Shown here piece by piece: positions 4,346-56,640 of a stretch of DNA of 64,000 nt. Origin of the DNA: Schistocephalus solidus (Eukaryota > Platyhelminthes > Cestoda > Diphyllobothriidea > Diphyllobothriidae); the NCBI GenBank assembly GCA_017591395.1, contig WEDG01005091.1:74501-138500 (forward strand), written 5' to 3'. The position numbers and the translations under genes were made by a program. Position 1 is the stretch's first letter; the number at the start of each line of letters is the position of its first letter. The notes below the pieces were generated by a model. The model was not told where the DNA came from, ran no database searches, and saw nothing but the letters and a program-made list of their open reading frames with translations.

Positions 4346-4690
4346 CTATTTTTTTAGTGAAGCAGTTTTTTCTCCTAGTTTTTAATTGGCGGCTCGCCGA
4401 ACTCCGCCTCCGATTTATCCCTAGGAGTTTTTTTACTGCTTCTTTTTCCAGTTCACCGTATATGCCAAAGATTGTTGACTTTTGTTTTTAAAAATGGCAA
4501 AATCGTTTTTGAATCGGATATGTTTACCATACAACTCAATTCTGCTGTTCATATGGATGCTCACATAGTGCAGCAATTATCCACTTTGTATTTATTTAAA
4601 CCACGGTACTGAGTTTGTAATGATGGGGCCTTCTGGGCCTTAAATATACAATTTATTTATTTATTAATAACTTAATTGTAAATGAGTTCG
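4346..4690 (+). mobile_element. 3' end of an ENE-bearing non-LTR element
   Basis: This segment matches, in reverse orientation, 50,690-50,370 over about 320 bp. Both have the U-rich hairpin, then the shared stretch ending TGGGGCC...TGGGCCTTAAATATAC and an AT-rich tail with TTTATT repeats. The common end point suggests 5'-truncated insertions of one element sharing a 3' terminus. No coding part is attached. Confidence 0.7.
4359..4442 (+). other. ENE-like U-rich internal-loop hairpin (copy a)
   Basis: Outer helix: GAAGCAGT (4359-4366) pairs perfectly with ACTGCTTC (4435-4442). Inner helix: CTCCTAG (4372-4378) pairs perfectly with CTAGGAG (4421-4427). Between them, U5 on the 5' strand (4367-4371) faces U7 on the 3' strand (4428-4434). 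The apical part contains a further GC-rich hairpin around GGCGG/CCGCC. This is the layout of an ENE, in which the two U tracts embrace poly(A). The pairing is seen in the sequence; the function is inference. Confidence 0.65.
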
Positions 4691-4844
4691 CACTCGTTTT
4701 ATTTTTTTCCCAATTACAGTGCACTTCCGGGTACTCAAATAAAACATCTATATATCTTTCTATCTATCCCTCATCGCTTCGGCTCATTTTGGAACATAGA
4801 TCTTTCAAGGCTCCTTTATAAACTTTACAGAAATGGTAAGTCAC

Positions 4845-6600
4845 TTTATTGAGGGAATAAGGCTTTCGCCTTGAGATCCCTATTCACATTCAAAAATTTC
4901 AATATAATAAACGTTTACAGCAATAAATCTTACAAATTTAAATATAAGGTCTTCAATATGTGTGGGCCAGGAACAAGCTGCCGCTACTGACACAATCTTT
5001 ATTATATGTACAAAAGTTTCTCGGCAAATGAGTATCTTGTTTGCATATAAATGTGTTAACAGTTTCTGAAAGGTCCACCTCGTCAGGGAGTCCATTCCAT
5101 GCTCCAATGACCTTCTGTGATGGGCTTTCCACGGACGTCCGTGTTGATCAACTTCCTCTGAAGTTTAAAGGGAGGACCCCTCACCTGTTCCGTCAAAGTC
5201 AATTCGAAGAAGTCAGCAAATTCTTGGGCACACTCGTGGCCTCTGAAAATCCGGTAGGTTTGGATGAGGTCATCCCGTAGTTGCCTGTAATTGAGAGGAA
5301 ACAAATCATTTCAACCAGTTTGGCTTCGTTAGGCAGATGACTAAAATTATTGATGATCCTCGTAGCCGTCGCATGCACTCGTTCCAGCTGTACATAATTC
5401 TTCTTAAACCAAGGATGCCAGGCCTGGACGGCATATTCCAAGTGAGATCGAACAAATGCCCCGTAGGTTTTTCGGAAGAGTTCCTTATCAATCTGCATAA
5501 ATCCACGTCTTAGCGCAAATAAAAACTGTGTCGCGCGTTTAGCTACCTTTAAACACCATAAAGATGGTTTGAGTGTGGAGTTTTGTTTTAGAATTTATAT
5601 TTGGTTAGCACCGGCAAGGCACTGTCTAAGCAAACATTTGTAACGAAATAAAGTTATGACAATGTGTGCAGATAAAATGTACAAATACATAACTTGTACT
5701 GCTATGTCAACAGTTAGCGATGTTTTAAAATAATTGGTGAACTAGAAAAAATCTTAGACCACCAAGGTCCTTCGGTTCCTCAACGATCGAAAGGGGCTGT
5801 CCATTGAGAAGGTGTTGGTAGGAATCATCGTCCTCACTGATCCTTCTGGTACAGAGTCATAGGACCACACACTTCCCAATGTTAAAATGTAAGAGTCAAC
5901 AAGCACACCGGCTGCTAAGACGGTTGAGACTCTATTGAAGTGCATGCCTATCGGCATCAGATCAGATGGCCCTCCACAATTTAACATCATCTGGAAACAT
6001 GACAGCTCTGAAAACCAGGTCATCGACACAATTGTTGATGTGCAATACGAAGTGTAACGGCCTTGAGAGGGAGCCTGGGGGACAGCCCTTAGAACCGCAG
6101 TAGGTGTTGACTTCGAGGTATTGATGCACACAATTTGTAATCTTCCTGTAAGAACATCTGCAATCCGTGTCAGCAGCATTCCCCTTATACAAATTACAGA
6201 TAATTGGTAGATGAGACGTTTGTGTGGGACACTGACAAACGCCTTCTTGAAATCAGTGTAAATGACGCCAACCCTACCATCTTTCTCCAATGTGCTAGTC
6301 CACTACCCGGTCGTAAGCAATAGAGTGGAAAGACAAGAGCGATTCTGCCTGAAGCCATGCTGGAACTCCAAGAGTAATCAGTTTTCCTCCAGGAACTTCA
6401 TGGTCACCATTCTTAATTATTGATTTTTTTTCCAGCAAATGAAGGTTAGACTGACAGGCCGGTAATCGTTGGCATTAGATCAATCCCCACTCTTGTATAT
6501 GAGCTAAATAGTTGTTGCCTTCAATTTGGATGGCAGTTTCCCTAATTTAAATGACGAATTGAATACATTCGCTAGTGGTTTGGAGAGTTCGCCAGCCAGT
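4845..6600 (-). mobile_element. CR1-like retrotransposon copy 1, interrupted
   Basis: From 6600 downward the minus strand reads RT residues: LPSKLKATTI, NDYRPVSLT, GVIYTDFKKAF, VPHKRLIYQL. The catalytic box is decayed (MFPDDVKLW for the expected F/YADD). After an insertion at 5588-5752 it resumes with the C-terminal region (FVRSHLEYAVQAWHPW, NYRQLRDDLIQTYRI) and ends near 4845 with a short 3' UTR ending in sequence akin to CTCAATAAAGTGACT. Its last residues (VSVAAACSWPTH) match the copy ending at 58.5 kb, so the two are one subfamily. Confidence 0.8.
5588..5752 (-). mobile_element. 165-bp retrotransposon 3'-end fragment inserted in CR1 copy 1
   Basis: Nearly identical to 6603-6770 and in the same orientation. 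It splits the RT domain from the C-terminal region of the surrounding CR1 copy, so it arrived later. Because the other copy is attached to a U-rich hairpin on its 5' side, I read this as a severely 5'-truncated insertion of an element's 3' end. Confidence 0.65.
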
Positions 6601-6602
6601 TG

Positions 6603-6870
6603 AGAATTTAGAATTTGTATTTGGTTAGCACCGGCAAGGCACTGTCTAAGCAAACATTAGTAAAGAAATAAAGTTATGACAATGTGTGCAGATAAAATTT
6701 ACAAATTCATAACTTGTCTTGCTATGTCAACAGTTAGCGATTTTTTTAAAAATAAATGGTGAACTAGATAAAATAGGCAGTGAAAAATTCCTACCATAAA
6801 AAAATGGAGGTAGAGTTCAATATGCCTTCATTTTTTTGAATAGAAGGTAGGAGAAAAAACTGCTTAGGAA
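6603..6870 (-). mobile_element. 3' end of ENE-bearing element, second copy
   Basis: On the minus strand, a U-rich hairpin (6865-6776) is followed directly by the 165-nt sequence also found at 5752-5588. The pair therefore defines the 3' terminal segment of one element family. It abuts the RT start of CR1 copy 1. Confidence 0.65.
6776..6865 (-). other. ENE-like hairpin (copy f)
   Basis: Minus strand: GCAG (6863-6860) pairs with CTGC (6780-6777). U6 (6859-6854) faces AAUUUUU (6889-6783 region, U tract at 6787-6783). The inner helix is TCCTACC (6852-6846) with GGTAGGA (6795-6789), 7 bp perfect. Inner-helix sequence differs from the other copies yet still pairs, a compensatory pattern. Confidence 0.6.
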
Positions 6871-7239
6871 AAAAATGGTCAGGTGGTAGAGAAGGGTAAT
6901 AATACAGAAGCATTTCAGAATGAGATAATGAAACTTCGAGGTGATTCGTTCTAGATCACTTAGGCGTATGAAACAAAATCTCACGAAAATGCGTCAATGA
7001 ACTTAAGTCCTCAGCATCTTAGGATCCAGAATTGAATTCTGATGATGGTTAGTATCCAAAGAAACGGTAGCATTTTAGACTGTGGACCACCAAATGTGTA
7101 CGTCCGAATGACGTCATCGTTTGGATGACTGGTGATATAAGGAGACATCATAGTTCATGGGCAACTTGAGGAAGCGAAAATATAGTTTCAATAGAGTCAC
7201 TTAAATTCCCCTATGGTCCTTTCTCCGAGTCATAGGGAA
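6871..7239. other. No recognised gene
   Basis: No open frame or repeat that I recognise. It may be the unrecognised 5' continuation of the minus-strand element whose 3' end lies at 6870-6603. Confidence 0.4.
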
Positions 7240-7800
7240 AGCTCAGTTCAGTTCAGTTCAGTGTATTTGAGGAAAATAGGCTTATGCCTTTGAAATCCCT
7301 ATTTGTTATATAAAAGTAGCAAGAAGAAGAAGCAAATTAAAGAAGTAACAGTCAAGTGAATGCAGGCAGGTTTACATGGTACACTGATATTGTTAAAGTT
7401 AAGTAGTCACATAGTCTTCGTGGTACTGTAACATATGTATGTCAAGTCGATGCTTGAATGTATACACAGACTGGGACATAACAATCGCCTCAGGTAGGTT
7501 ATTCCACGGTTCAACGACACGGTTGGTGAAAAATACTACCTTACCTCCAATCTTACTTGGGGCACACTTAGTTTGAATGGATGACCTCGGAGATTTTTCG
7601 TAGTGGCATGTTGGAAAAAGTCATCAAATAGGAGGGCGCAATCCATGCCATGCACGATACAGAAGGTTTGTATCAAGTCTCCGCGTAACTGCCTATAACT
7701 CAGAGGATAGAGCTTTAGGTTATTTAGACGAATCTCATATGGCAGTTCAGCTTGACCTCTTACCAATTTTGTGGCTCGCCGCTGCACCCTTTCAAGGGAA
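7240..7800 (-). mobile_element. CR1-like copy 2, 5'-truncated
   Basis: Only the C-terminal region is present: [36 protein letters not shown], then a 3' UTR and a tail of tandem ACTGA units (read on the minus strand, 7245-7262). Short tandem repeats at the 3' end are typical of CR1-type elements. The 5' end breaks off at about 7800 inside the next element. Confidence 0.8.
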
Positions 7801-9300
7801 AAGATGAGGAAAATAAAAGGTTAATAGAATCCATGTTAAAATAAATGTGCAGTCTTCGCTTGAATGCAGATAGACTAAATAACGACCTTAATTCCATTGG
7901 CAAGTTATTCCAAAGAAAACTATGCCTCGAAGCAAAGAAGAGAGAGCGTTTACACGTGGAGGATGCAAGGGAACTATGATTAGTGCAGAATTTCTCAGGT
8001 TATAAGTAAGTCTAACGGGGGTAATGACAGAAAGCTTGGGGAGGGTTGAACTATTATTTAGTCGGAAAAGGAGACAAAAGCCTGCTTCAAGTCTCCTAAC
8101 CCAAAGAAATTTTAGCTTCATTAGCTGGCATCTTGTTGAGTAGGAAGTAGTTGAAAGAGTCGGAAATAGGAGTTTTTTTGTGAAATGTCTTTGGACATTT
8201 TCAATTTTTGAACGGCTAGATTCGTTCATTAAACCAAAGAAAGGACAGCAAAATTCAAGAATGAGAAGTACAAAAATACGATAAAGTCTTAATTTAATTT
8301 CAGGAAGGTAGAAATGTTTAGAAATAAAGCCGCAAATCTGAGCAGCTTTGACTGTAATTCTATCGGCATGAGGCGAAAGATCTAAGTTATTGGTGTAGCC
8401 CAAGTCCTTGATGAAGGAACATTCAATCATAGGGCAACCTTCAAATATAAGAGGTTGCGGTAGCATTACAGGCCCAAAACTCATGTAGCGACACTTAGTA
8501 GGTGAGAACTCCATTAGCCATGATGAGCTCCAGGCCGAAAGAGCGCCTAAGTCTGAATGAATTTGTTCTAGGCACCGTTCGGTCGTAGAGTTAGAGAAGG
8601 AATACACGCGTTTGAGGTCATCAGCATAAATAAAAGATTGAGAATGTTCAACTATCGATGAAATATAATTTATAGAAAGTAAGAACAACAAAGGACCTAA
8701 TACGGTACCTTGAAGGACACCACTAACAATCGGGGTAGCACTTGAGCATGAGGAGCCTACTAAACCTTTTTGTTTTCGATCATTTAGGTATGATCTAATA
8801 AAGTCAGTAAGGGGACTATGAAATCCTATAGCTTCTAGTTAAGCTAGAAGTCGTTTATGAGGCACTTTATCGAATGCCTTACTAAGATCAAATAGATAAC
8901 TACCACAGAGAGATGATCATTACGAAGAGTGGTTAGTAGATTTAGAAAAGAAATTTGCAGGTTTCACAAGAGCGGTCCGGTAAGAAGCCGTGTTGGGAAA
9001 AGTTGATAATTTGATTGCTTATGCAAAAATCCGTGATTTGTTTTGCAATTAGTTTTTTGAAGAGTTTAGCAAGAGAGGGCGTTTTATGAACACCGCGATA
9101 GTTATAAATGTCCAAGCGGGAAACAGATTTAAAAACTGGTATTGTAATAGAAGTTTTCCAATACTCGGGGATAAAACAATTTTCGAGAAATACTGAGAAT
9201 AACTTGCTTAGTAAAGGTGGAAAATACCTTAACTGTTTTATAAAAGAGTTTGGAATGTTATCAGTTCCAACCGAATGTGAATTTTTTAGGTGAGCTATTT
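7800..9300 (-). mobile_element. Non-LTR retrotransposon family C, RT portion
   Basis: Minus-strand frames give an RT: LSKAFDKVPHKRLL near 8880-8830 with errors, GTVLGPLLFLLSINYI, then an intact catalytic box FIYADDLKRVYSF near 8630, and a C-terminal region (MELRSLFSLSAFKRRLHIYF near 7910-7840). The 267-aa frame at 8691-7888 is the longest intact RT piece in the window. The endonuclease is not present. Related fragments lie at 48.3-49.3, 51.6 and 58.6-58.9 kb. Confidence 0.75.
7888..8691 (-). pseudogene. Reverse transcriptase C-terminal half (family C)
   Basis: Open frame of 267 aa. The start is arbitrary because the RT runs on upstream in other frames. It contains FIYADD (the two catalytic aspartates of RT motif C), a thumb-like region with LGALSAWSSSWLMEFSPTKC, and the family C C-terminal region (FCCPFFGLMNESSRSKIENVQR). 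As part of a truncated element it cannot support mobility itself. Confidence 0.75.
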
Positions 9301-9359
9301 CCTTTTGAATACATGAAGGCGAGATAAAGAGTTTTCTACTCAGATCAACGAAAACTGTC

Positions 9360-10017
9360 CTATCACCAACGCTGTGAGCTTACAAGCCTTGACCCGCTGT
9401 GGCTTCGCAGATTACAGAAGGGACTATTTTTACTGTTTAAACTACTAAACAGTCGTACATTTAAGCCCCTTACATCTCTGAGGCACCTCGACCACTCTCG
9501 GCGCACCAGTCATCGAGATGTATTTTTATTTCTTCCTTTGGCACGCACAGTTAGATACCGACAGTTTTTTCGGTAAACGCTATAGCAATCTGGAATAAGC
9601 TACCTATAAGTATCGAAATTCAGCAAAGCTATCCCTTGTTTACGCGAACTGTCCCTAGTTTTCTACATTCAGGACACCTTCCAAAACTTTTGTGTGCTGA
9701 CTCTGTTGAAGCTCTCTTCGGTTCTGATGGCGTTCACGGACTCTGAATCCTTTGCCGGTCTTCATGCTGAGGGCAATATTACTGGCTCTGCAGACCTCAA
9801 TCGGCTTATTTCTCAGTCGACAGCGAACAGCCGCTCGCCGACATACCTGCTGGTGCAGAATACCGGATCCGTAACACTAAATGGAGAGGTTCTTCACCGG
9901 GCACCTGTGTTAACGCGTCCCTGTCCAGAACTTTAATTAATCAATAAGCTGCAGTTTTTTCTCCTGAAAACACCTGAAACAACAATCCGGATTTTTTTCA
10001 CTGTCAGCTTGACCCTC

Positions 10018-10020: not shown

Positions 10021-10076
<56 letters not shown>
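10021..10076. repeat. (TA)n microsatellite
   Basis: About 27 TA units directly after the 3' UTR of the family A copy. It may be the element's own 3' tail or its insertion target. Confidence 0.95.
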
Positions 10077-11720: not shown

Positions 11721-11914
11721 TAGAATGGGCATTACGTGGTTATTCCACAGTGGTTGATTGTCTTCGACCCAAATGTTTCATTGAAATTTCGGATCCGGAC
11801 CCTAAAAAAGTCATGTCCGAATCACCTGACTCCATGTCCTGCACTTAATAATTTCAGAAATTATTTTACCCGATTATTCTCTGGAGTCCATATACCAGAA
11901 ACCGCATAGAGAAC

Positions 11915-12001
11915 GCTGGGGACCCACTGAGGAGCCGAACCCCTCGTTGCTGTGTCACACAGCAGCAGAAACATCGGCGAAACACGTATCTGGCTTTTAG
12001 C
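11915..12001 (+). ncRNA. Hammerhead ribozyme, unit 1
   Basis: All invariant core positions are present: CTGAGGA (11,927-11,933; fits CUGANGA), GAAA (11,979-11,982) and cleavage context AUC ending at 11,990. Stem II is GCCGA (11,934-11,938) with TCGGC (11,974-11,978), capped by an inner hairpin TGCTGTG/CACAGCA. Stem III is a very short near-palindrome ACACGTAT, as in Penelope-type hammerheads. Stem I is CCA/TGG here (one G fewer than in units 2 and 3), then an internal loop and GCT/AGC. Confidence 0.75.
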
Positions 12002-12267
12002 TAGTATCTATGTCGGAAGTACGGTATAACGTCTTTGCCATATACGATTCATACTACTTGTAGTACTACTTGTTTGTAGAATGGGCATTACGTGGTTATT
12101 CCACAGTGGTTGATTGTCTTCGACCCAAATGTTCATTGAAATTTCGGATCTGACCCTAAAAAGTCATGTCCGAATCACCTGACTCCATGTCCTGCACTTA
12201 ATAATTTCAGAAATTATTTACCCGATTATTCTCTGGAGTCCATATACCAGAAAACCGCATAGAGAAC

Positions 12268-12356
12268 GCTGGGGGACCCACTGAGGAGCCGAACCCCTCG
12301 TTGCTGTGTCACACAGCAGCAGAAACATCGGCGAAACACGTATCTGGGCTTTTAGC
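12268..12356 (+). ncRNA. Hammerhead ribozyme, unit 2
   Basis: Core CTGAGGA at 12,281-12,287, GAAA at 12,333-12,336, predicted cleavage after C12,344. Stem I is four pairs (CCCA/TGGG), an internal loop, then GCT/AGC. Stem II is GCCGA/TCGGC as in unit 1. Confidence 0.75.
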
Positions 12357-12622
12357 TAGTATCTATGTCGGAAGTACGGTATAACGTCTTTGCCATATAC
12401 GATTCATACTACTTGTAGTACTACTTGTTTGTAGAATGGGCATTACGTGGTTATTCCACAGTGGTTGATTGTCTTCGACCCAAATGTTCATTGAAATTTC
12501 GGATCTGACCCTAAAAAGTCATGTCCGAATCACCTGACTCCATGTCCTGCACTTAATAATTTCAGAAATTATTTACCCGATTATTCTCTGGAGTCCATAT
12601 ACCAGAAAACCGCATAGAGAAC

Positions 12623-12710
12623 GCTGGGGACCCACTGAGGAGCCGAACCCCTCGTTGCTGTGTCACACAGCAGCAGAAACATCGGCGAAACACGTATCTG
12701 GGCTTTTAGC
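12623..12710 (+). ncRNA. Hammerhead ribozyme, unit 3
   Basis: Core CTGAGGA at 12,635-12,641, GAAA in 12,687-12,690, predicted cleavage after C12,698. All pairing partners match unit 2. Confidence 0.75.
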
Positions 12711-12747
12711 TAGTATCTATGTCGGAAGTACGGTATAACGTCTTTTG

Positions 12748-12748
<1 letters not shown>

Positions 12749-12809
<61 letters not shown>
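12749..12809. repeat. (TA)n microsatellite right of the ribozyme array
   Basis: About 30 TA units. They separate the array from a truncated family A copy. Confidence 0.95.
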
Positions 12810-12815: not shown

Positions 12816-14790
12816 TGACCTTGCCTGTAAACTGGCAAAAAATAAATAACTCTGGGCACATTTAAGTCGTGACCCTCTATGCTCAGGTGGGGCTGATGGT
12901 TGTCGCTAATAACCATAACGGAGCACTTGTGCCAAGAAAGTGAAAGGTGCCATGTGAGACACCACTGAGCGAAGGCCTGAATATCACTTTTAAAGAGCTC
13001 AAGCACGATGTTGCCATCGACCGGTTTATATCGATAGGCAACTTTTTAATCGTCAACGTACATAAAGGGCCTACCATACTGAAAACAATCAGGAACATCG
13101 TTGACAAAGAGGCAAAATAGAAGCGGGCCGAGCACGCTGCCCTGAATAACTCCGCTCCTCACATGCATGGGGTTGGAGATATTATCAGAAATTTTAACCC
13201 GTTGTGCGGGAGCATACAAATAGGAGGATATTAAGTTCAGAAGCTTGTTACCTATGCCAAAGGAGGCAAGTTTCAGCAGTAGGAGATCATGGTCAACACG
13301 ATCAAAAGCCTTAGTGAAATGGAAGTAAACGGTGTAAATTGCAAAACCGCTGTTTCAAAATTGTAGCACATGACTCAAAGAAAGAGAGCTGGCAAGTGTT
13401 ACAAGACCTTTTTTCGAGAAACCCATGCTGAGCCACATTAAGTAGGTTATTCTCTGTTAGGTGATGCATCATCTTGTCTTTTATCAAGGTCTCTTAGATC
13501 TTCGAGACTGCTGGTAGTGTATTTATTGGCCTAAAGTCGTCAAATGACGTAGTTCGGCCGTGTTTGGGTACAGACAGTATGTGCGATTCCTTCCATAATA
13601 TAGAGAAAGTTTCAATTCCAAAGAGCAACATAAAATATCTTATACAGAAAAGATGGAAATATATCGTTTGCACCCGCCTTTAGAACACTGACCGGTACAC
13701 CATCTGGTCCAGGACTGTAAGATTGACGAAAACGCCGAATGGCTACGGTCACGTCCCAGGGGATAAAAGTTATGGTTTCGAGGATGTTACCGGTCCAAAC
13801 CCGGATGTTAGGAAAGGGAGCGACAGTATTTTCACTAAAAGTTTTAGACAAGAAGGCATTGCAGCTATAAGCAGTCACATTAGCGTCAGCTATAGGGTTT
13901 CCTAAGGCATCTCGAAGAACGGGGTGCTGCGTTTTTCTCTGCACTTTTACTGTGCACGAAAAGAGCTTCGCAACATTTAACGAAGGGTTTTCGGCAAAGT
14001 TAACCTCATCAGCTAGTCGTTTCTTTCAGACGGCCTCTTAGCCTCTTCAAAGGTTTGTTGGATCAAGGGCAGATCGGAAGTGTCGTTTTGTAGATGAAAA
14101 CCATGGGAGAGTCTACGCAATCTACGGCGAAATGATAAAAGGAGGTAGACTACATCCTTGACATTAATTATTTTCTTACGGGGAACAAAACGAGAAATGA
14201 GTGGACCTAGAACTTGGTACAATGTATCAGTACAAACATTCACATCCAAATATAGAAAGAAGTTAGTCCAATCGTGGGAATTAAGATGTGTTAGTAATTG
14301 CCCCATAATTGCTGATCAGAAATCATGGAAAAAATTATATTTTTTAGAAAACGTTTCATCAGTCTCGATTTCTAATGAAGAAAGAACTATAGCATGATCT
14401 GAACTCCCACATGGGTCAAAAGGTGAAACTGACAATGGCTGACAACCTCTGCAGAAAATGAGATCAAGTATGTTTGATCATCGGGTGGGAAAATTAACGA
14501 CCTGTTCCCACATGCCAGTATCTATGGCCTCAAGCAAGTTTTCGAAATTTGCAGGACCGGAAGGTGGAAACCAATGAACTTCAGGAAGATTGAAGTCACC
14601 TGCATTCAAGCAGTACTTCAGATTTAGGTCAACTGCGGCATGAAATGCCTGTGAGAGGCGAAGATTGTAATCATCGCTTGCGTTTGGGGGTTGATAGACA
14701 CAACCAACGAGTAAAAGAGTAGTTATCTTTTAGAACTACTCGGAGCCAACAGCTCTCTTCTACTGCGGTAAATTGTCGATAATCCAACGG
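12815..14790 (-). mobile_element. Family A copy 2
   Basis: Minus-strand order from 14,790 down: endonuclease pieces (FTAVEESCWLRVVLKDN, AGDFNLPEVHWFP), linker (LNSHDWTNFF, LISRFVPRKK), RT (SYSPGPDGVPVSVLKAG, then IQGSVLGPLLF-like and decayed catalytic region) and a thumb-like part (WHLSLSWHKCSVMV). It stops at about 12,830, beside (TA)n. It closely parallels copy 1 (1-3240) and the plus-strand copy at 54.1 kb, including the same linker. Confidence 0.8.
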
Positions 14791-15110
14791 CAGAAACGTT
14801 GTAAGTTTGTAAGCATCTATTATTTTCACCAATTCGTTCTGTATTATCCTCACCATCACTTTGCCGAGGCTGCGTGTCAAGTTTACGGGACTATAATTTG
14901 TTACTTACTCCCGGCTACCGCTTGTGTGTAGAGAAGTTATATAAGTCAGCTTCCAATCGGCAGTAACTGTTCTATAATCAAATGAAATATGAAGGAGCAT
15001 TGACAGAAGTACAGAAAGTTTCATGGCTAGTTATTGAGAAGCTGTGGTGGAATGTCGTCTGGTCTACCGCCCTTAGAATACATTTTTAAAAACAGGATAC
15101 GAATAATGCT
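14791..15110 (-). pseudogene. RT fragment of another non-LTR element
   Basis: The minus strand reads GGRPDDIPPQLL, then NYSPVNLTRSLGKVMVRII, the fingers region of a CR1-type RT (cf. NYRPISLTS...KIMEKII). It joins the family A endonuclease abruptly, so this is a junction between two insertions. Confidence 0.65.
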
Positions 15111-16377
15111 TGGAGTCGGCAGGTTTTCTGCGAAGTGACGCAGGAAGACTACGGGCGCCAGTGGGGGATTTGAGGGGGCTGGATGGAACTAAACGGCAGG
15201 GCGTAATGGGGAAAAGTCGACGGTGTGGCCCCCTCACAGGAAAAAATGCACAATGGGACCCGAAGATTTCCTAACATTTACAGCAACCTTTTCTGTATAT
15301 CAAACGCCCAGCGCAAACTGCTTTCCCTGATAATTGGCCTCTATTGATGCTCTAATTGTGGTACTATGAACGGCCAAATGTTATGCCATTAATAGGTCGT
15401 CCGTATGGATCCATTCAACACATTCCTGCGCTGTACCCACTCACTCAGGACATAGAACATGCGTAGATGAAATTTGCGACGTATTTTATAATTAAAAAAG
15501 ATACAAATATGTGCATGCGTAGGAAAAGCTTGTCATAGTCTGTCGAAATTGCTGCCGTTATCCAAAGGTGGTTCCTAAAATAAAAATAAATATGTCGCGT
15601 ACCAAAAAATGCCAGGCTAGATGAACATTATGAAAAGAGTTATAAATCACCAACATCGAAGTCTTTACTAAAATACATACCACTTCATTAGTCACGCTCA
15701 CCAATCACCAACACCAAAGTCAGGATTTAAAATACATACTTCTTTATTAATCTTGTTCACCAATCATCAACACCAGAGTCAGGATTAAAATACACTTCTT
15801 CGAAAGTCACGTTCACCAATCACCACCATCAAAGTCGGGGAGGCGATAGAAAAATCAGAAAGTAAGAAGATACTGTTTTCGGCCTTAGGGGAACTGGTTA
15901 ATTTTTTCTATGATTCTAGGGTAAAGAAAATTATAATTCATAGGTCAGTGTCAGATTTAGTTTGCGGACTTCCTTTGCAATGGGCTTAGTACACAGATAT
16001 TTATATATTGCAATATATTTCTAGGCAAAACGCAAAGTTTTTAATAAGGAACTGGAAGTTCTGTGAGTTAATTTTGAAAACCTATCAGTTAGTCTATTTG
16101 AATGGTCTGACAGGACTTTGTTAGACAGAAGTAGAGTCTCCTATCCACTCAATGAAATCACCACAGGTAAGCAATATGCACTAGTTGGAGGCTAGGTCTC
16201 ATAGGTCAGCAAGATAAACGTCGACGAGCATAGAACCCACTCTTTCACGGACCTGTATTCCGGTTCTAGTCTGAAACACGCAAAATTTGCCTACAATATG
16301 CATGTATATATATTGGCAACTGAATACAAACCATCTGAGTCAACTTTAGTTACTTGAGTGTTGATACTCCACAAACG
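15111..16377. other. No recognised gene; contains a 59-bp tandem repeat
   Basis: Apart from the short tandem repeat at 15,644-15,840 I see no gene or element. The last few hundred bases should hold the promoter of the tRNA synthetase gene; no TATA box or other motif stands out. Confidence 0.5.
15644..15840. repeat. ~59-bp tandem repeat, 3-4 diverged units
   Basis: Units begin near 15,644, 15,702, 15,761 and 15,817, each with a core of the form CAATCACCAACACC followed by AAGTC and TAAAATACA. Units are diverged, and the last is partial. Confidence 0.8.
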
Positions 16378-20000: not shown

Positions 20001-23000
20001 AGCGCTGTATTACCCGCGATCTGAAATGGGGAGTTCCAGTGCCTTTGAAGAAGTTCGGGAACAAAGTACGCTTGCAAATTTTACTTAATCTTTGTATGAT
20101 TTCTGATTAAACGCACAAACGTCCCATTTGTTTGCAGATAGCAGTTAAATTTATTGTGTCTGGGGATGAGCTCACATACGGGGTGCTGACTGGCTGCGTC
20201 TTTTGAGTGTCAACATAAGCCGTAGTTATATATACTTTCGGGGCTCTGACAGAATGTCGTGTCTGTCTTTAAAGGGCATCCTTGACAATTAACTGTTCAT
20301 TAACTCTGACGCCGCCTTTTCCCAACATCCTTGTCTTTGGGCTGTCACGATGTCCAAATGCGACGATTGAAGGGTCATCCCAGGTAACCCAGAAGTCTGA
20401 TAATGCTATCGGGTATACTAGGGAATGACATGAAATAGGTGCACAATTTTAACCTTGTCAGATATAATTTACCTGACCGTCTTCGTCGTTCATCTCTAAG
20501 TGCAGTACGCGTATCTTACCCGCGCTTGAGGTGAAAGCTCCTCAACTCCTTTTACTACTTTATTATGAAGGCTTTTTCTTTGCCGCACACGAGCATAAAC
20601 CTAAAGAAAAGATAATATAGAAGGATAAGACTGAATGATATCCGGGCACGCAATTAAATCTGTCTGCTATAAAGGCCAGTTATCGGCTTAAAGCAGTTAT
20701 TGCTTTACCTACATTAGGGCCTTTTATGTAGCCATAGTCCCAAGCTAATTTTCTATCATATACATTTTATAAGTGCAGATTTCTGTCTCTTCATTTTGTG
20801 CTTCTGTTTCATGTTGACTTATCTGCTTTTCATATCTGTTTACCAAGCACTGTTTCTTTATCCAGAAGTGCTTCTCTTCTGAGAATATATCGAATAGAAA
20901 ATCACGTAATCTTTAGAGAGTATTAGATATTTTAAGATACATATTCCGGCTATACTGTGGGTCTTCCGGTAATGCTACCCCTTCACTGACCCAAAAATTG
21001 TACTTTTAAACATGTCTAGGTTTTCTACGTGTGGTTTGACGCCCCCATGGGTTATCTGTCAATCACGGCCAACTACACTCCCTGACTGGCGTCTGTGGTG
21101 GCAGCCTCCGATGGACTTTGCTCCCGTTGAGTACTTCCAGTTCATGGCAAAGGATAATGTTCCCTTCCACGCATCTATCTTCCCCGCCTGCTTGCTCGGT
21201 GTCAATGAAGGCTACACCATTGTGAAAAACCTTATTGCTATCGGTCAGTTTTGTCATTTAGTGGAGTTTGAGGGAGAAGTTTGTTTTCTGTTTGCCTCCC
21301 TACAAGACTTTCCTATGTTACTTTTTGCAGTGAATCATTAGTTTTAGATTTATCCCTCCTCCCTGATATGAGGACAGAAAAAAAAAGTTTCATAATACAG
21401 GGACTACCTGAATCAACAGCTGCGACTCCAGTAGACCGATATTCTGAAGACATGAACCGCTTTCGTGAACTCCTGAACAATATGCTGGAACCTAATACGT
21501 CGAATGAACTAGAAAAAGCCTTCCGCCTTGGAAAACGGCCCGAAAGCCAATCTGAATCAACACGTCCTAGGCCTCTAAAAAGTTATCTTGACCAGTAGCC
21601 AGGAAGCCAGTCTCATTCTGTCGCGGCGCTTTAAGTTAAAAAACTCAAACCCTGGAGTTTTTTTTCAACAGGACTTCTCACTTGCGGAGCGGAACAAACG
21701 CCATCAACTTGTCATCGAACTAAGACGGCGGCTCAGCGAGGGGGAAACAAATTTGGTTATTTACAACAACCAAGTGATCCACCGTCCATTGTTCTCCCCC
21801 CTGGAGAGGCCCGTTCCGGATTACCACGCAGTTAGCCCAGTAATCAGGGGCTCGCGCCCGACTGTTAGCACTTTCCGAGCAAACCGAAAACTAACATTTC
21901 TGTACACCAATGCACAGAGTATATTATCGAAGCTCGACGAGCTAAAGATTCATGTCTGCGATCTATCTCCAGATATAATTTCCGTAACAGAAACTTGGTT
22001 GTCCCAACAAGTGGACGACCGAGAGGTAACTATGGCTGGCTACCAACTTTTTAGAAAAGACAGGAAAGAGCGTCAAGGAGGTGGCGTACTCACATACGTG
22101 AAAAGCGAACTTACAGTTTTAGACAAAACTTATAAACTCGCGTCTACTTCCGAGGCGATATGGCTATCCGTAAAAGTGCCAGGTACATCAAGTCTAGATG
22201 TCCTGACAGTCTACCGCCTACCGAGAAGAGACCCCGTAGCCGATGCTTACCTGCTAGAGGAGCTTGAAAAGATAGCTACACGGTTGGATATCCTGATCAT
22301 GGGTGACTTCAATGCGCCTCACATCGACTGGAGGTCGACCTGCGCACATAGTTCTGATCTAGCCTTTGACGGTAGTTTTCTGAGCACGACGTTAAAGCTA
22401 CGTCTAACACAGCACGTCACTTTTCCAACCAGGGTGTGTGAAGGACAGCAGGCCAATTGCCTGGACCTAGTTCTCACAAAGTCGCACGACAGCATCGACG
22501 AAGTGTCATGTCTACCGCCGCTAGGCAAAAGTGACCACGTGGTACTGCGATGGGAGTACTCACTATTTTCTATACCAGCAAGACCCACAACAATCAGAAT
22601 GAATATATGGCAAGGCGATTTCGGTGGAATGAGGGCCGAACTCATGCGCAATCAGTGGGAAACTTTATTCTTTGGAAACATAACCGAGGACTGTGAAACG
22701 TTCCGGGACATACTGCACAGGCTCATCGAAAATCGCTGTCCAATTTTGAGAAAAAGGTTAATCAACAGACCGCGATGGCTTACACAGTCCTTAAAAATCG
22801 AAGTTAACAAAAAGCGGAGATTGTGGAAAAAATCGCTTACGGACGGAACTCCTGGATCTCTAAATGCGTACAAAATGCAGAGAAATCGGGTCAAGGGCCT
22901 TATTGTTAGAACAAGACAGGCTTTCGAAGTGGACCTGCTGAACCGGGCCACCGTGAACCTGAAACTGTTTTACGGTTACCTCAGGCAGAATACACGGAAC

Positions 23001-26000
23001 AAGGATCCGATACCCCTGCTGAGGACCGCCGAGGGCATAGACCTTACTGAAGACGGTGCGAAGGCTGATCATCTTTCGGAATTTTTCCAGTCGGTTTTCA
23101 CAAAGGAAACGAGATACGATCACCCTACCGATGGCTTCGAAGTCAATACAATAGTCGAGACTGTTAATTTCACCGAGACTACTGTCCTCAAGGAACTTTT
23201 GGGGTTAAAGGAATCTAAGTCTCCGGGTCCCGATGAAGTACCTGCCAAGCTGTTGAAAGAGCTCGCGAGAAAGTTGGCAAAACCACTCTCTACGCTTTTT
23301 CCAAACATCCTTCCAGACCGGAAGTCTACCAGCCGACTGGAAATCCGCATGGATTACGCCGCTTTATAAGGGTGGAAGCCGGGTCTCTGCAAACAATTAT
23401 CGACCGATCAGCCTAACTTCAGTTTGCTGCAAAATCATGGAAAAAATAATTAAGCAACAACTTATGCAGTTCTTCGAACATAACAATCTGCTACGGTTTA
23501 CAGTCTGAATGGCATTCCACTGAAAGAAGTGGATGTCCAAAAGGACCTTGGAGTCTGGATCACGCCCTCGCTTAAACCCTCCCTACATTGCGCAAAGGTA
23601 GCGAAGTCAGCCATATCGATTCTGTACCTCGTTAAACGAGCTTTTGCAGCCTTCACCACTGACTGCTTCGCTAAAGTCTTCGGAACATTCGTGCGGCCAC
23701 AGTTGGAGTCCGCTATCCAAGCTTGGAGACCCTGGGCGCCGAAGGACATCAACATACTCGAAAAGGTCCAAAGGCGAGCAACCAAACTTGTCCTTGGACA
23801 TGGCTCACAGCCTTATGAAACACGGCTGTCGAGTCTCAATCTCTTTCCCTTGCACTATAGACAGCTTCAGGGGGACCTGATACTAACATTCCGCATACTA
23901 CGCGTCCAGGACTGTTGTCTCGTCCCAGGGGATTTCTTCGAGTTAGCAAAAACAACGAACTTGAGAGGTCATCCTCTCAAATTACGTGTGACTGGAGCAA
24001 GGCTAGACACTCGGAAGTACTTCTTCTGCAAAAGAGTAGTCGAAGCTTGGAGTAGTCTTCCTCTGGATGTTGTTATGTCGGACTTCTTGGAGGTTTTTAA
24101 GCGAAAGTTAGATCGATATAATGGTGCGAGCTACAACACTAACTGAAAGCTGCAAGTGTGACGTGATAAAATAAGGCATTTGTGATACTACTAGCTATAT
24201 TTGAGTAACGTTTCTTTATGTTTGTTATTTTTGTTCGAGGGCTTGCATTCTCCCATTATTCCCATGCTGGGGTCCTCGAGGTCTTCGCTGCTTAACTTAT
24301 TTGCACACCTTGGTGACACCGTGAGTATTTGCATCAGCTGGACCTGGCGACCGTCGTCCATGAGGTGTATGAACGTTCTCCCTTGGTTCGAACCGCAATG
24401 GACCGAGGATGATCTGGACATATATTTCCGCCTTTGAAATCCCTCAACGGACTCTGCGATCAGCAAGGGAGAATCTGGCTGATTCATGTGACCTCCGAAA
24501 TGCCCCCCGTTGGACCCCTCCCAAGGGCGACAGTTTTTTTCTCCCTAAATATCACCGGGAGTTTTTTTCACTGTCTGCTCTTTTTCAACTATGTTCCACT
24601 ATGTTGGCCTCGCCAACATATCGAGATACTATTTTTTTGATACCACAACTCGCATGTACAAATAGGGAATTCAAAGGTGACTCACCTACATCTCCCTCAA
24701 ATATACTGATACTGAATACTGATACTGCTCTACACCGATTCTAGAAACAAATAGGACCTTTACAGCCAAGCTGAGTTTTGTCACGGCGACGGCTGGGTGC
24801 TGAATTACTCTGGCAAGTCAAGGTGGAAGGGAAACCCACACCGGTGTAGATGTACACTCGACGTGATGAACAGACAAGGCGTTTTACCGAAAAATCCCCG
24901 TTCCTCCTAACATGATCATTGTGACGGTTCCCCACCAGTCTGGCTACTTTTCATTCATTTCTATCTATTTACTTTTCCCTCTGCAGGTTTACTGTCTTTT
25001 AGTCTAATTCAATCGTTGTATCCTATAAACACCCGCACTGTCAGTGGTGGGATATATTTGACCGCGTTTCATATGGTGTTGCATTTATTACTCAATGGTC
25101 TAAGTGGTTTTGGAGTTTCTTTATCTACACCACTTCATGTGGTCTTAGTCCATTTGAGTGGCAAGTCAACTGTCCTTATGCACAGTTCCTTTTTAAAATG
25201 TAGTGCGCAGTGCGGCAGCCTTATTTTTCGTTTTCTGATCACCTGCCTCACCATCGCTCACGGTTTATTTCTCAACATCAGTCACTGTTGAAGGATCCTT
25301 CTAACATTAATTATGACAGTGCCTGTGATTGCAATCTCCCACCTGCATATACCCCGTTTATTTCACTTGGAATTCCTAAATGATTTTTTGTAACCCGTCT
25401 GAAATGATTTATTTTGCTTGCTTCTAGACTATCTCAACTACGAGGGAAAGAAGTTCTCTAAGAGTCGTAGCGTTGGTGTGTTTGGTGACAATGCCAGAGA
25501 AACTGGCATAGCTTCGAACATTTGGCGTTTCTATCTTGCGTATATTCGCCCCGAAAACCAGGTAAGGTTCCCAGTACCCGTCTTTGCTCCAGAGGCTCCG
25601 TTTAACTGCTGGGAATTGTTAATCTGCCGGGAATTATATTTACTTAGAATTTTTCTAAACTATCGTTTCTTCTGTTTGTTTTTTGTGTTAAAGGATAGCA
25701 CTTTCTCGTGGGAAGACTTCGCGACCAAAAATAACTCTGAGCTTTTGAACAATCTGGGGAATTTCATAAACCGGTAATGTTTACCGATGCATGCCATTTT
25801 ATATTCTTCTTTCCATTTATCCTCTCGCTTTTGTCGGTGTTGTATGGTATTTTTGCAACAGGGTTGATGCTATGACCAACATAGGCTCATTAAGGGTGTT
25901 CGCAATTTCCAATTTGCCACACAGAGTGCATCTGTGACAAGTAGCCAACTACGTTCGTTGTATGCCCTTGGTACAAGATTAATGCCAGTCTTCAGCCGGA

Positions 26001-30104: not shown

Positions 30105-30450
30105 ACGCTCACCGATTGCTAACTGAACTCACTCGTCCTGCCCTGCCTTGAGGCTCACTGTCGAGCCCCTCCAGCAGTTGCACAGCGGCTAGTAGTAGAG
30201 TAGGCAGGTGAATATTGCCGGCAAAGACTAGGGAGACTGGAGTTGCCATTTCTGGCTTATTAGTCGTCAGCCAGTCAAGCCCAATGTTTACGGCATTGTA
30301 CTTCTGATCAAGGTGTCCCGGAATCGATCCTCGGGTTGCGCACCACCTGAGCTTGGATATGACTGGCTGATGACGGCTAATAAGCCAGAAATGGCCACTC
30401 CACTCTCCCTTGTCTTTGCCGGAAATATTCACCTGCCGAAGGTTGTATTT
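30105..30450. repeat. Repeat R1 with inverted arms
   Basis: A left arm (about 30,200-30,275, minus sense) and a right arm (30,361-30,438, plus sense) are reverse complements at over 90% across about 75 bp, separated by an 85-bp spacer. A unit beginning CACCGATTGC extends the left arm to 30,105. This could be two head-to-head insertions of one short element, or one element with long inverted ends. Confidence 0.75.
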
Positions 30451-50369: not shown

Positions 50370-50690
50370 TAAATAAATTGTATATTTAAGGCCCAGGGGG
50401 CCCCATCATTACAAACTTATTATCACGGTATAAATAAATAGAAACGTGGATAATTGCTGCTCTGTGTGAACAGCTATATGAACAGCAGAAATGATTTGTA
50501 TGGTGGCATATCAGATCTATAACGATTCATCATTTTCAAATAAATAGTCAGTAATCTTTTAAATACATGGTAAACTATGAAAGAAGCAGTGAAACCAATG
50601 CGATAAAATTGGGGGTGGAGTTCAGCGAACCCCTATTTTTTAACCAAATCTATAAGAGAAAAAACTGCTTACTAATGAATTAAAAGCTAT
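50370..50690 (-). mobile_element. 3' end of ENE-bearing non-LTR element, minus strand
   Basis: Reverse-orientation partner of 4346-4690 with the same hairpin region and the same 3' terminal sequence. See that entry. Confidence 0.75.
50584..50671 (-). other. ENE-like hairpin (copy b), partly decayed
   Basis: Outer helix AAGCAG (50,671-50,666) with CTGCTT (50,590-50,585). U6 (50,665-50,660) remains, but the 3' U tract has shrunk to UUU and the inner helix has mutated. Confidence 0.45.
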
Positions 50691-50694
50691 AGTT

Positions 50695-51635
50695 GATGTG
50701 ATTGGTATGATGTAGTGGGAACGTACTGTGATGTTGGTGACAACGTATGATGGTTCGGAACGCTCCTTGTCGTGGGAGAGATCATAGAGCAGCCAGAGCT
50801 ACTGTTTACAATCATCAGGGAGGTGAGACAGGAAGAGCTCTTCGTAGACAACAGGGTGGAAACGAAGGGGGGACAGTAGATGTCATGAGATCATCACCAA
50901 GATGTTAATTTGCTGATTGCATAGTCCACCGAAATAATAAATAAATTAATAGGTTTATTGATTTGGCACTGCTTAGGCGCCGTCAAATGGTACCGAAAAC
51001 ATCAGAACCCGCTTCTATCATCAATAGATCCCGGAGATTATCGTCAGGTTTGCGAAAACGGAGGAACGTATCAAGGTTGTCAACAGTTGGCGAGGATGGT
51101 TGAAAAGGAGGGTACAACAAAGAGACTGCGAAGCTTGACTTTGCAGTGGATAATGAAAACCTATTAAGAAACCAATGTACTGTCAATGGAACGGCCTCAA
51201 ATACCAGGAGGACCCTTTTCAAAGGCCAAAAATTGCGTGTTAGCGAAAAGAAGTTACAATAAGGACTTAATATCTTTTAAAGTTACAGGTTTCTATACTT
51301 TGGTTTGAAAACCGCTAATGTAGACGACAACCAAATTTGGAGTGGAAGATTATTCTAGATGAAAGCATAGTTGGAGGCAAAAAACGAGAATGGATAGCTG
51401 TGGAGCTTAGGGGTGTTGAAATGATCATGGAGGAATTCCGGATGGCAAAAGGTAAATCTACCGGCATGAGAGCATTTAATCTTAGGAGATTTGGGCAAGA
51501 GTTAACGCAAAACAGGAATAAGAGACCGGCTTCGAATCTTCTAACCCAGAAATATTTAATTTTCGCTAACTGACATCTCTCCGTATATGAAATACTGGAT
51601 CCAGAAACAGAAGCTAGTCTTTCAAGATAAAGTCT
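50695..51635. other. Unassigned, possibly mobile-element derived
   Basis: Plus-strand frames around 50,960-51,570 are rich in charged residues and might be an ORF1 or linker remnant. No diagnostic motif. Confidence 0.3.
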
Positions 51636-51639
51636 CTGA

Positions 51640-51860: not shown

Positions 51861-52439
51861 ACCGAAAACTCAATCTCGTTATTAAAAAGGGCTCCCGAGT
51901 CAACTTCTCTGATTGCAAAGGAAAGGGGTGAACATGACCCCAGTCTTTTCCGAGCATACTCAAAATTTCGATTCTTCAATATGGCGAATGCGTTACCGTG
52001 CACAAAGCATTCCGTTAAAGGAAAGCGAGTGTTTCACATGAACTTTCATAACCGAGGTCTCTGAAAATCATTATTGAAAATGAAGTTCAGGCTTCACGCC
52101 TCTTAGAACGGAGAATGGCTCTCCGTAGCTCACAGCGGGATTTTTTTTCCGCCAGATTAAGAACTGGTGGAAAGGCACAAAATGAGGATGCTGAGAAACG
52201 AACTGAAGAGGACAACTGAACAGGGAAAATGGCTCGAAAGAAATGATTTGGAAATAAAAGTGATGAAGAGGTCTTTCTTGTAGGACATCTCGTACATCAT
52301 CAAGATGGGTCATCACCGAGACGGAGGACACTAAATACAAAGGACCCAACTGTACAGAGCTCGCATAACAAAATGAAGGCGCTCCAGAACTCGGTTGATG
52401 ACCACTCATCAGACCTCAGTGTAAGCGTGATGGACACCT

Positions 52440-54110: not shown

Positions 54111-54119
54111 TCTGTTGTT

Positions 54120-56640
54120 TAGGCCCACTTGGGAGCTCAGACCATGACATCGTTGTTTCTACACTACAATTCAAAACCTAGGAATCGTTTTCTAAAAATA
54201 TAGCTCTTTTGAATTTCGGATTAGCACTTTCGGCAGAATTATTGATAAATCTTAACTCCAACGATTGGTCTGATTTCTTTCTATGTTAGTATGTGAAAAC
54301 CTGTAGCTGTTTGCTGTACAAAGTTTTGGATCCACTTATTTCTCGTTTTGTTTCCCGTAAGAAATTAACTAATGTCACGGATGAGGTTCACCCCCCTAAA
54401 TATTTCCATCATAGGTTGCGTAAACTCTCTCGTCGATTCCAGTTTCAAAATGACATTTCCGTTCTGCCCTTGATTCGGCCTATTTTTGAGCAGACTAAGA
54501 GGCTATCCGAAGTAAAGCGGCTAGCCGATGAGGTCAAATATGTCAAAAATCGTTCGTTTAATGTCGCGAAACTTTTTTAACGCGCAATAAGGACTCATCC
54601 TGTCCTTCTAGACGCCGTTGACAATCCTATAGTCGATTACAAATTTACGGCTGATGGTTTTAACGTTTTCTTGTCCAGAAAATTTATTGAAAATTCAGCC
54701 GCTCCCCCTCCGACCATCCAGCGTTGGACCGGTGCAGTCCTCGAAACCATAACTTTTACACTTTAGGACGTAACCGTAGCCATTCGACGTTTTCATAAAT
54801 CTCATAGTCCTAGACCAGATGGCGTACAGATCAGTATTAGAAAGGTGGGTGCTGTGTTCTAGTTTTGGAAAAAGAAATCTTTTCCAGTGTGTGGAACGAA
54901 GCGCACATTCTATCTATCCCCAAACACGGCTAATCTACGTAATCTGACGATTTTTGGCCAATCAATACATTGTCCACAGCTTCGAAAATCCTGGAGACCT
55001 TGATCAAAGATAAGAGGATGTTTCACTTAACCGATAATAAACTACTGAGTGCAGCCCAGAGTTGGTTCCTAAAAACAAGGTGTTGTGCTACCTGTCAGCT
55101 CTCTTTCTTTGATCACGTTCTACAATATTTGGATGATGACATTACACTTTACATAGTCAATTTCGATTTTAGTCAAGGCCTTCGATCATGTTGACCATGC
55201 TTTTCTTCTCCTCAAACTCTCCTCTTTCGGTATATCTGGTAAACTTCTGAACTTGATATCTTCTTACCTGAGCTCTCGCACACAACATGTTAAGATCTCC
55301 AATGTTATCTCAAACTTGGCACGTGTGAGGAGTGGAGTTATTCAGGGTAGTGTGCTTTGCCCACTTTTATTTTGTCTTTTTGTCAATGATGTACCAGGCT
55401 TATTTCAGAACGGTAGGTTCTTTCTGTATGCTTAAGATTTAAAAGTTGCCTATCGATACAAGCCGGCAGATCGCGACACAATACATGATCTATTAAAAAT
55501 GATCTTGAGGTCTTTGCCCAGTGGTGCTGCACATGGCACCTTTCCCTTTCTTGGCACAAATGCCCCGTTATGGTTGTTGGCGACAACCATCAGCCTCAAT
55601 TTAGCATAGATGGCCTCGATCAAAATGTGCCCGGCGTTGTCAAGGATCTGGGCATATCATATTCCAATGGTCTTAATCTTTCAGAACATTGCACCCTTAT
55701 TATTTCCAAAGCACACAGAACAACCGGGTTATCCTCCGAAATTTTAAAACTATTAAAATTAGACTTCGCCTTTATTAAATGTACGTTAAGCCTGGCCTGG
55801 AATACTGCTCGTTTCTATTTAGCCTTCTGCGCGCTAGTGAACGCAAGAAAATAAAATCAGTCCAGCACTTCTTTACGCAAATAATTTTATCGGTGGAGCA
55901 ACGTAATCTGCGTATCAAGAACATTGTGGGCTTATAAACATTGGTCACTGATTGTTTCGCCGAGTACAGAAGGGACTCTTTTTATTGTTTAAGCTTTTAA
56001 ATAGTCTTACATTTAATCTCCTTACCACTGTGAGGCAGCTTGACCACCCTCGGCGCAGCAGTCATCGCAATGTCTTTTTATTTCTTCAATTAGCTCGCAG
56101 AGTTAATTATCGTTGACTTTTTTTGGTAAACGCCATATATATATATATGGAAAAAACTACCACAGAATGTATAAATTCTATGAAGTTACTCTTTGTTTAA
56201 GAGAACTATTACTAGTTTTCTTTCATTCAGAACAGCTTCAACGAATTCTGGGCGCTGACACGGTAGAATCTGTTTTCTAGTTCGACGGAGTGCGTGGCAC
56301 CTGAACCCGATCCCAAATCTTACTTTGAGGGCTATGGCACCGTCTCTGCAGACTGCACCCGTTGAATTTTTTGGCAGACAGCTAGCAACCATCCACGGAT
56401 GCACTCTTGCCTAGGTCAGAATCCTGGTTCCTAAAAAAAAACAGAAAAATTGCAAACATAGTGAACTTGTGTTAGCTTTTCCCTGATCTGAATTGCTACC
56501 ATCCAAAAGGCAGCATTTTTTCTCCTGAATAACATAAAGATAAGAAAAACACTTATACTGATATATATTCAGGAGATTTTTCACTGCCATCCTGATCCCT
56601 ACTGAATATTCGTCCGATAATGGATGTAAACCAGCATTAA
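54120..56640 (+). mobile_element. Family A copy 3 (longest RT)
   Basis: End of endonuclease (LGSSDHDIVVSTLQF), linker (LISRFVSRKKL, RRFQFQNDISVLPLI), RT (VAIRRFHKSHSPRPDGVQ, LSSRTQHVKISNVISNLARV, VIQGSVLCPLLFCLFVNDV, and RFFLYA-stop-DLKVAY in place of YADD), thumb and C-terminal region, then 3' UTR with a U-rich hairpin and a TAT-rich tail. It lies head-to-tail between two CR1-like copies on the same strand. Confidence 0.85.
56509..56588 (+). other. ENE-like hairpin (copy e)
   Basis: GGCAG (56,509-56,513) pairs with CTGCC (56,584-56,588). CTCCTGAATA (56,522-56,531) pairs perfectly with TATTCAGGAG (56,566-56,575). U6 (56,516-56,521) faces U5 (56,577-56,581). It lies near the 3' end of family A copy 3. 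Confidence 0.7.

What the first reader, a model, noticed from the sequence alone, without database searches (positions are those of the whole stretch)
4359..56588. ENE-like poly(A)-clamping hairpins at the 3' ends of flatworm retrotransposons
Seen: six copies (4359-4442+, 6776-6865-, 9946-10010+, 24529-24575+, 50584-50671-, 56509-56588+) of helix, U5-7, helix, loop, helix, U5-7, helix. Outer helices vary as GAAGCAG/CTGCTTC, GACAG/CTGTC, GGCAG/CTGCC; inner helices as CTCCTAG/CTAGGAG, CTCCC/GGGAG, CTCCTGAATA/TATTCAGGAG, TCCTACC/GGTAGGA. These are compensatory differences with the U tracts kept. They lie in 3' UTRs of two distinct families (CR1-like copy 4 and family A). Known: ENEs in viral and long noncoding RNAs, and in plant and fungal transposon RNAs, have this layout and protect poly(A) by a triple helix. 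Inference: these elements stabilise their RNA the same way, or use the structure for 3'-end recognition by RT.
Basis: partly seen in the sequence, partly recalled or inferred. Interest (0 to 1): 0.92.

Follow-up and report, generated by a model that had tools for sequence, protein, structure and literature searches.

The report
Poly(A)-clamp-like hairpins in flatworm LINEs
Several families of jumping genes in what is probably a tapeworm genome carry, near the 3' end of their RNA, a hairpin with two facing runs of U that looks like known structures that wrap an RNA's poly(A) tail in a triple helix; the hairpin is real and conserved, but the clamping itself has not been shown.

Summary
Of the six named sites, four fold as helix-U-helix-U-helix; two (9946, 50584) are decayed copies whose inner helix is lost. 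A seventh, decayed site of another family lies at 4104-4207. In the 604-Mb source genome the two-sided core occurs 1,077 times against 0 for the reversed control. At least six 3'-end families (F1-F6) carry it. F1/F2 and F3/F4 reverse transcriptases are 35-37% identical, F5 and F1 27-28%; no coding region was found for F6. Helix arms differ in compensating ways between families while two U tracts and the core CAG-U-CUCC...GGAG-U-(C)A-CUG persist. A very young further family (F8) has the same architecture with other stems. Best explanation: an ENE-type poly(A)-tail clamp (about 0.6). Against it: element ends are short tandem repeats, not poly(A); triple helix and RNA stability are untested. Poly(A)-signal-like hexamers do sit at the ends. 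Main rival: recognition by the element's own reverse transcriptase. No report of this in flatworms was seen in the listings searched; the key catalogue of ENEs could not be read.

The parts
4354..4447 (+). F3 hairpin, intact: outer GAAGCAG/CTGCTTC, U6, inner CTCCTAG/CTAGGAG, U7
   Evidence: (89.2 bits)
50578..50676 (-). F3 hairpin, decayed: outer helix and 5' U tract kept, inner helix and most of the 3' U tract lost
   Evidence: (48.0 bits, not in the training set)
6769..6871 (-). F4 hairpin: outer GCAG/CTGC, inner TCCTACC/GGTAGGA
   Evidence: (71.3 bits)
9943..10012 (+). F1 hairpin, decayed: outer helix and both U tracts kept, inner helix lost in the minimum-energy fold
   Evidence: (40.0 bits, not in the training set)
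24522..24582 (+). F5 hairpin, intact, of a young family: outer AGGGCGACAG/CTGTC-T-GCTCTT with a bulged U, U7, inner CTCCC/GGGAG, U7
   Evidence: (46.8 bits)
56502..56595 (+). F2 hairpin: outer GGCAG/CTGCC, CA then U6, inner CTCCTGAATA/TATTCAGGAG
   Evidence: (77.7 bits)
4104..4207 (+).
   Evidence: (17.7 bits, E 0.16, equal to a match at 14317-14398 that looks spurious)
4638..4668 (+). 3' end of the F3 copy: TTAAATATACAATTTATTTA, hexamer AATATA then an ATTT repeat
6601..6626 (-). 3' end of the F4 copy: AACCAAATACAAATTCTAAATTCT
24698..24727 (+). 3' end of the F5 copy: CAAATATACTGATAC repeats
56637..56658 (+). 3' end of the F2 copy: ATTAAATACAACTATTATTATT
21579..23369 (+). open frame upstream of the F5 hairpin with an endonuclease domain
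   Evidence: PF14529, PF03372
7888..8838 (-). open frame upstream of the F4 hairpin with a reverse transcriptase domain
   Evidence: PF00078

Best explanation
These are ENE-like RNA stability elements in the 3' UTRs of CR1-like LINEs. Shown: in the sense strand a hairpin places two U tracts opposite each other between two helices; the helices are kept by compensating differences between families, and the U tracts and the pairs next to them are kept too. Inferred: the element RNA is polyadenylated just past its end, at the AAUAAA, AAUAUA or AAUACA hexamer; the poly(A) tail folds back into the U-U loop and forms U-A-U triples; this slows deadenylation, so the RNA lives longer and is more often available for retrotransposition.
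For: Two-sided core 1,077 against 0. Covariation on 20 hairpins: 81.1% of 280 cells paired against 77.2% in shuffles and 27-55% with one arm slid; 22 cells changed on both sides against 11.6 +/- 2.8. Own arms beat all 265 arm swaps between the six families for outer energy and inner pairs. U tracts flanked by G-C: lower closing pair G-C in 19 and G-U in 1 of 20, upper C-G in 20 of 20; such pairs are needed in the Evade ENE (PMC12501189, passages). The core is shared by elements whose reverse transcriptases are 27-37% identical. F8, 99-100% identical in 40 of 40 scored matches, has the same layout with other stems, z -8.1. Poly(A)-signal-like hexamer at the end in 8 of 9 sequences checked.
Against: No RNA evidence at all. 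Element ends are tandem repeats, not poly(A), though a few F1 copies have short A runs. In one search, 157 of 500 shuffles reach the 6 doubly changed pairs and further pair types are fewer than in shuffles (12 against 14.6). F4's own outer helix is weak (-4.5 kcal/mol) and its 5' arm pairs as well or better with every other family's 3' arm. F6 copies fold poorly (z -1.0 for L117). In F8 the pair above the U loop is A-U, not G-C. Old copies lose the tracts.
Confidence: 0.6

Rival explanations
1. The hairpin is the 3'-tail structure by which the element's own reverse transcriptase recognises its RNA (stringent-type LINE); the U tracts are protein contacts or U-U pairs.
For: Stringent LINEs need a 3' stem-loop that their ORF2 protein binds (PMC4176376, passages). 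These elements end in short repeats, as stringent LINEs do, and the hairpin is in the 3' UTR.
Against: In zebrafish L2 elements recognition is through the loop and specific to the cognate protein; here the apical loops differ while the U core is the same for reverse transcriptases 27-37% identical. In F1-F4 the hairpin begins about 86-265 nt before the anchor close to the end, and a smaller stem-loop nearer the end can be drawn in most families, with weak support.
Confidence: 0.2
2. The U-rich loop binds a host protein that affects RNA stability, export or localisation, without any poly(A) triple helix.
For: Nothing here distinguishes a protein ligand from poly(A): conserved U tracts in a fixed frame, shared by unrelated reverse transcriptases, fit both.
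Against: Facing tracts of similar length with G-C pairs on both sides are what a triple helix needs; a single-stranded U binder would not need two facing tracts (inference). Protein binding was not tested.
Confidence: 0.1
3. The core is a neutral remnant of common descent or 3'-end exchange among LINE families, without function.
For: Copies are clonal within families; F1/F2 and F3/F4 share sequence beyond the core, F7 resembles F3/F4, F5/F6 share the outer helix.
Against: Compensating differences on both arms; at one outer pair genome-wide A-U 476, G-U 57, A-C 7 (clonal, nearly all F5-type). Young families F5 and F8 still carry the shape.
Confidence: 0.05

Closest known systems
ENE of transposable-element RNAs, e.g. 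Copia93/Evade of Arabidopsis (PMC12501189, passages) and the rice hAT element (mentioned in PMC12846552, passages)
   Same: Hairpin in the 3' UTR of a mobile element with U tracts facing each other in an internal loop and G-C pairs next to them
   Different: Here in non-LTR elements of an animal, in several families and thousands of copies; element ends are tandem repeats; one internal loop (Evade has four U tracts); 3' tract usually followed by CA or A; poly(A) binding untested
ENEs of viral and cellular long noncoding RNAs (PAN, MALAT1; PMC8704770, passages)
   Same: U-rich internal loop poised for poly(A) or an A-rich tract near the 3' end
   Different: Here in elements with coding frames; no A-rich tract is encoded as in MALAT1 apart from short A-rich repeats in F1
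3'-tail stem-loop of stringent LINEs, e.g. ZfL2-1 and ZfL2-2 (PMC4176376, passages)
   Same: Structured 3' UTR of LINEs that end in short repeats
   Different: That stem-loop is read by the cognate protein through its loop; this hairpin lies further upstream and its core is common to divergent reverse transcriptases

Membership tests
ENE | Stem-loop whose internal loop has U tracts on both strands | tested here: met
   4 of 6 window sites intact, 2 of 6 decayed; copies of F1-F5 and F8 fold so, F6 weakly
ENE | G-C pairs directly next to the U tracts | tested here: met
   lower pair G-C 19 and G-U 1 of 20, upper C-G 20 of 20. Exception: F8 has A-U on the upper side
[quoted passage not shown]
   F1-F4; F5; F6; F8; genomic element ends, transcript ends not known
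ENE | A poly(A) tail or A-rich tract on the same RNA | tested here: inconclusive
   ends are tandem repeats; poly(A)-signal-like hexamer in 8 of 9 sequences
ENE | U-A-U triple helix with poly(A) | not testable with these tools
   needs melting or structure work
ENE | Protects the RNA from deadenylation or raises its level | not testable with these tools
   no RNA data
Described Rfam families | Match to an existing covariance model | tested here: not met
   window, E up to 5: none of the 11 matches at the six sites; whether Rfam holds an ENE family was not checked
Stringent-LINE 3'-tail stem-loop | Recognition specific to the cognate reverse transcriptase | not testable with these tools
   indirect only: one core with reverse transcriptases 27-37% identical

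The most novel reading that the evidence does not exclude
In these LINEs the hairpin clamps the poly(A) tail not only to protect the RNA but to hide it, so that reverse transcription starts at the element's own terminal repeat. That would reconcile polyadenylated LINE mRNAs with insertions that end in microsatellites, and make the hairpin a shared 3' module of divergent animal LINEs.
Probability: 0.15. Interest if true: 0.9.

Novelty: new variant of a known kind. Interest (0 to 1): 0.72.

Why it matters
A paper read in passages here says that of about 200 ENE motifs found in eukaryotic genomes most are from plants and fungi. If poly(A) binding is confirmed, LINEs of a flatworm use the same device in several families and thousands of copies. 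One genome would then offer a natural mutational series for the motif, and it would become testable how LINEs whose insertions lack poly(A) keep their RNA.

Tried and rejected
Rfam on the window: none of 11 weak matches at the six sites. Phage tblastn of the reverse transcriptase: no match. A tandem double hairpin in F3, suggested by 4104 lying upstream of 4359, was rejected: 4104 belongs to another family. Alignment A2 misaligned the inner helices and was not counted. The first inner-helix permutation used a wrong F6 reading from 3 copies (37 own pairs, mean 29.6, 0 of 265) and was replaced (43, mean 33.6, maximum 40, 0 of 265). The L036 reverse transcriptase, labelled F3, is 90% identical to F4 and probably not F3's own; F3 rests on L016, which was not given to Pfam. 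tblastn found no convincing coding match upstream of F6. F7 (L035:3990-4076) rests on one copy, its minimum-energy fold lacks the shape, and it is not counted. Row F4_win6776 of A1 is shifted by one column and was kept, which lowers the counts.

Biases: most A1 rows were fetched with the exact pattern GCAGTTTTTTCTCC, which imposes the 5' core and a 5' tract of exactly six; L072, L074 (found by flank) and the window rows were not. One search's tract lengths come only from copies that match family core strings (20, 5, 9, 6, 12 and 3 copies of F1-F6). 60 regions were fetched's list of 100 places, 20 from 40 places, 15 from 40, 20 from 40, 1 from 40. In copies found by flank alone both tracts next to the expected letters remain in 12 of 20 (F3) and 11 of 15 (F5); in F6, whose query held the hairpin, in 7 of 20. 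Searches use gaps of 20-50; (583 for GGCAG/CTGCC) uses 30-60, so the four are not one matrix.
Full report
Source. The window is G000:C3964:74501-138500 of a 603.7-Mb assembly in 8,019 contigs. The three best relatives of the reverse transcriptase at 7888-8838 (minus) are unnamed (63-78% identity); the best named ones are Sparganum proliferum (57-65% over parts), then Schistocephalus solidus (37%), both tapeworms. A tapeworm is likely; the species is not known. In S. proliferum CR1 LINEs make up 10.1% of the genome (PMC8166898, passages). That the elements here are CR1-like is my reading; no clade was tested by a tree.

Observation. All six sites were read and folded: four intact, two decayed (9946, 50584). 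A covariance model from 20 hairpins (A1), four of them window sites, recovers all six; the two not used for training score E 1.1e-6 and 1.5e-8. It also lists 4104-4207 at E 0.16, no better by score than 14317-14398, which looks spurious. 4104 is accepted because 3961-4215 matches other loci and has 40 scored matches in the genome, itself included, the others 79-84% identical. The aligned copies show GGAGCGACAG-U-CUCCUU...AAGGAG-U-CACUGUC-U-GCUC as the common form, though single copies are old and fold poorly.

Extent. The 14-letter 5' core occurs 4,475 times against 5 for the reversed pattern; the two-sided core 1,077 times against 0, with no exact match in viral contigs or genome contigs. In 43 sequences, 301,518 bases, a descriptor finds 33 hairpins against 0.0 in three shuffles. 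Those loci were chosen for the core, so this is not a genome average; 2 of the 33 lack the core.

Families. F1 (window 9943), F2 (56502), F3 (4354, 50578), F4 (6769), F5 (24522), F6 (4104). Coding frames lie upstream on the same strand for F1-F5. Reverse transcriptase domains are found in F1, F2 and F4 and an endonuclease in F5; F3 (L016) is 61% identical to F4. F1-F2 are 78%; F1/F2 against F3/F4 35-37%; F5 against F1 27-28% in the C-terminal part. No coding region was found for F6. F5 is young: 40 of 40 scored matches at 97-100%, the window copy included. F8, found by the descriptor in L025, is younger still: 40 of 40 at 99-100%, L025 included. A copy (L124) has a reverse transcriptase fragment 46-53% identical to F1-F4 over 116-121 residues and a C-terminal piece 24-38% identical. 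Its hairpin reads CAGG-U8-long inner helix-U5-CCUG without a linker, z -8.1. Only its 3' end is in the window, 50945-50988 minus.

Structure and covariation. With outer pairs at A1 columns 8-12/99-103 and inner pairs at 21-29/76-84, 81.1% of 280 cells form standard pairs, against 77.2% in shuffles and 27-55% with one arm slid by 1-3 columns. 22 cells differ on both sides against 11.6 +/- 2.8, and the covariation score is 0.192 against 0.131 +/- 0.014 (0 of 500 each), with 0.151 for a slide of +1. Six pairs have a change on both sides, which 157 of 500 shuffles reach; further pair types are fewer than in shuffles (12 against 14.6). Related rows can exceed shuffles without structure, so these are not probabilities. 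At family level the sixth inner pair is G-C in F1/F2, A-U in F3/F4, U-A in F6 and unpaired in F5. The outer helix is kept by different routes: bulged U in F1 (CUG-U-CAGCUU), bulged A in F2 (CUGCC-A-GCC), bulged U in F5/F6 (CUGUC-U-GCUC), none in F3. Swapping arms between families never equals the own arms in total: 0 of 265 for outer energy (-69.2 against a mean of -42.5 and a best of -58.1) and 0 of 265 for inner pairs (43 against a mean of 33.6). F4 is the exception: its outer helix is weak and no better than swapped ones. Genome-wide one outer pair is A-U 476 times, G-U 57, A-C 7; clonal and nearly all F5-type.

U tracts. In the copies counted, the 5' tract is most often 6 (F1-F4, F6) or 7 (F5); for copies fetched by the pattern six is imposed. 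The 3' tract is most often 7 (F1, F3, F5, F6) or 8 (F2); F4 is spread over 6-9 in 6 copies. A CA or A usually follows the 3' tract. Old copies lose the tracts, as dead insertions should.

Ends. Ends seen are tandem repeats: TAAA-type (F1), TAT (F2), ATTT-type (F3), AAATTCT or TAAA-type (F4), TGATAC (F5), TATC (F6), TATT-like (F8). Some F1 copies have A runs of 8-9 within the tail. An AAUAAA, AAUAUA or AAUACA hexamer precedes the repeat in 8 of 9 sequences checked; that these are poly(A) signals and variants is recalled. A small stem-loop before the hexamer is weakly supported: z from -3.7 to 0.0, none at that place in the F4 fold.

Mechanism. [quoted passage not shown] Removing it from a plant Copia element lowers RNA stability and mobility, and G-C pairs next to the U tracts are needed (PMC12501189, passages). 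The anatomy here fits: facing U tracts, flanking G-C pairs, 3' position, conservation across divergent elements, and in F8 the same layout with other letters. What is missing is any evidence from RNA. Recognition by the element's own reverse transcriptase is the main rival; in zebrafish L2 elements it depends on the loop and is specific to the cognate protein (PMC4176376, passages), which does not predict one core for such divergent enzymes.

Novelty. PMC12501189 says that around 200 motifs were found in eukaryotic genomes, most from plants and fungi. I recall from the abstract of Tycowski et al. 2016, not held here, that one fish was the only animal with ENEs in transposons. Listings for ENE or triple helix with transposons, non-LTR elements or fish and with flatworm words (10 of 4,831 papers listed; the two that hold 'triple helix' were not opened) showed no report in flatworms. 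That is absence from listings, not proof. I call it a new variant of a known kind; whether it is an ENE stays open until poly(A) binding is tested.

Noticed in passing
50945-50988 (-): Only the 3' end of the very young F8 family (95% over 44 bases), without its hairpin.
   Followed up: yes
L124:2825-2960 (+): F8 hairpin with long inner helix and U8/U5 tracts; about 1.5 kb separate it from the last coding frame, an unusually long 3' UTR if the copy is whole.
   Followed up: partly
L035:3990-4076 (+): A hairpin-like stretch (F7) related to F3/F4 with outer AGUG/CACU; single copy, not the minimum-energy fold.
   Followed up: partly
11721-12754: 2.9 copies of a 355-base tandem unit, 98% alike, between AT repeats.
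   Followed up: no
15645-15836: A 59-base minisatellite, 3.3 copies, 78% matches.
   Followed up: no
33611-33693 (-): A tRNA-like match of 28.1 bits, just under the Rfam cut-off of 29; perhaps a tRNA-derived short element.
   Followed up: no
30203-30437: A stretch that matches its own reverse complement at 75% over 241 columns, with short pieces also near 40660-40704.
   Followed up: no
1-1574, 12848-14796, 54118-55638: Long mutual matches of 71-79% in the window: further copies of a LINE-like region, not assigned.
   Followed up: no
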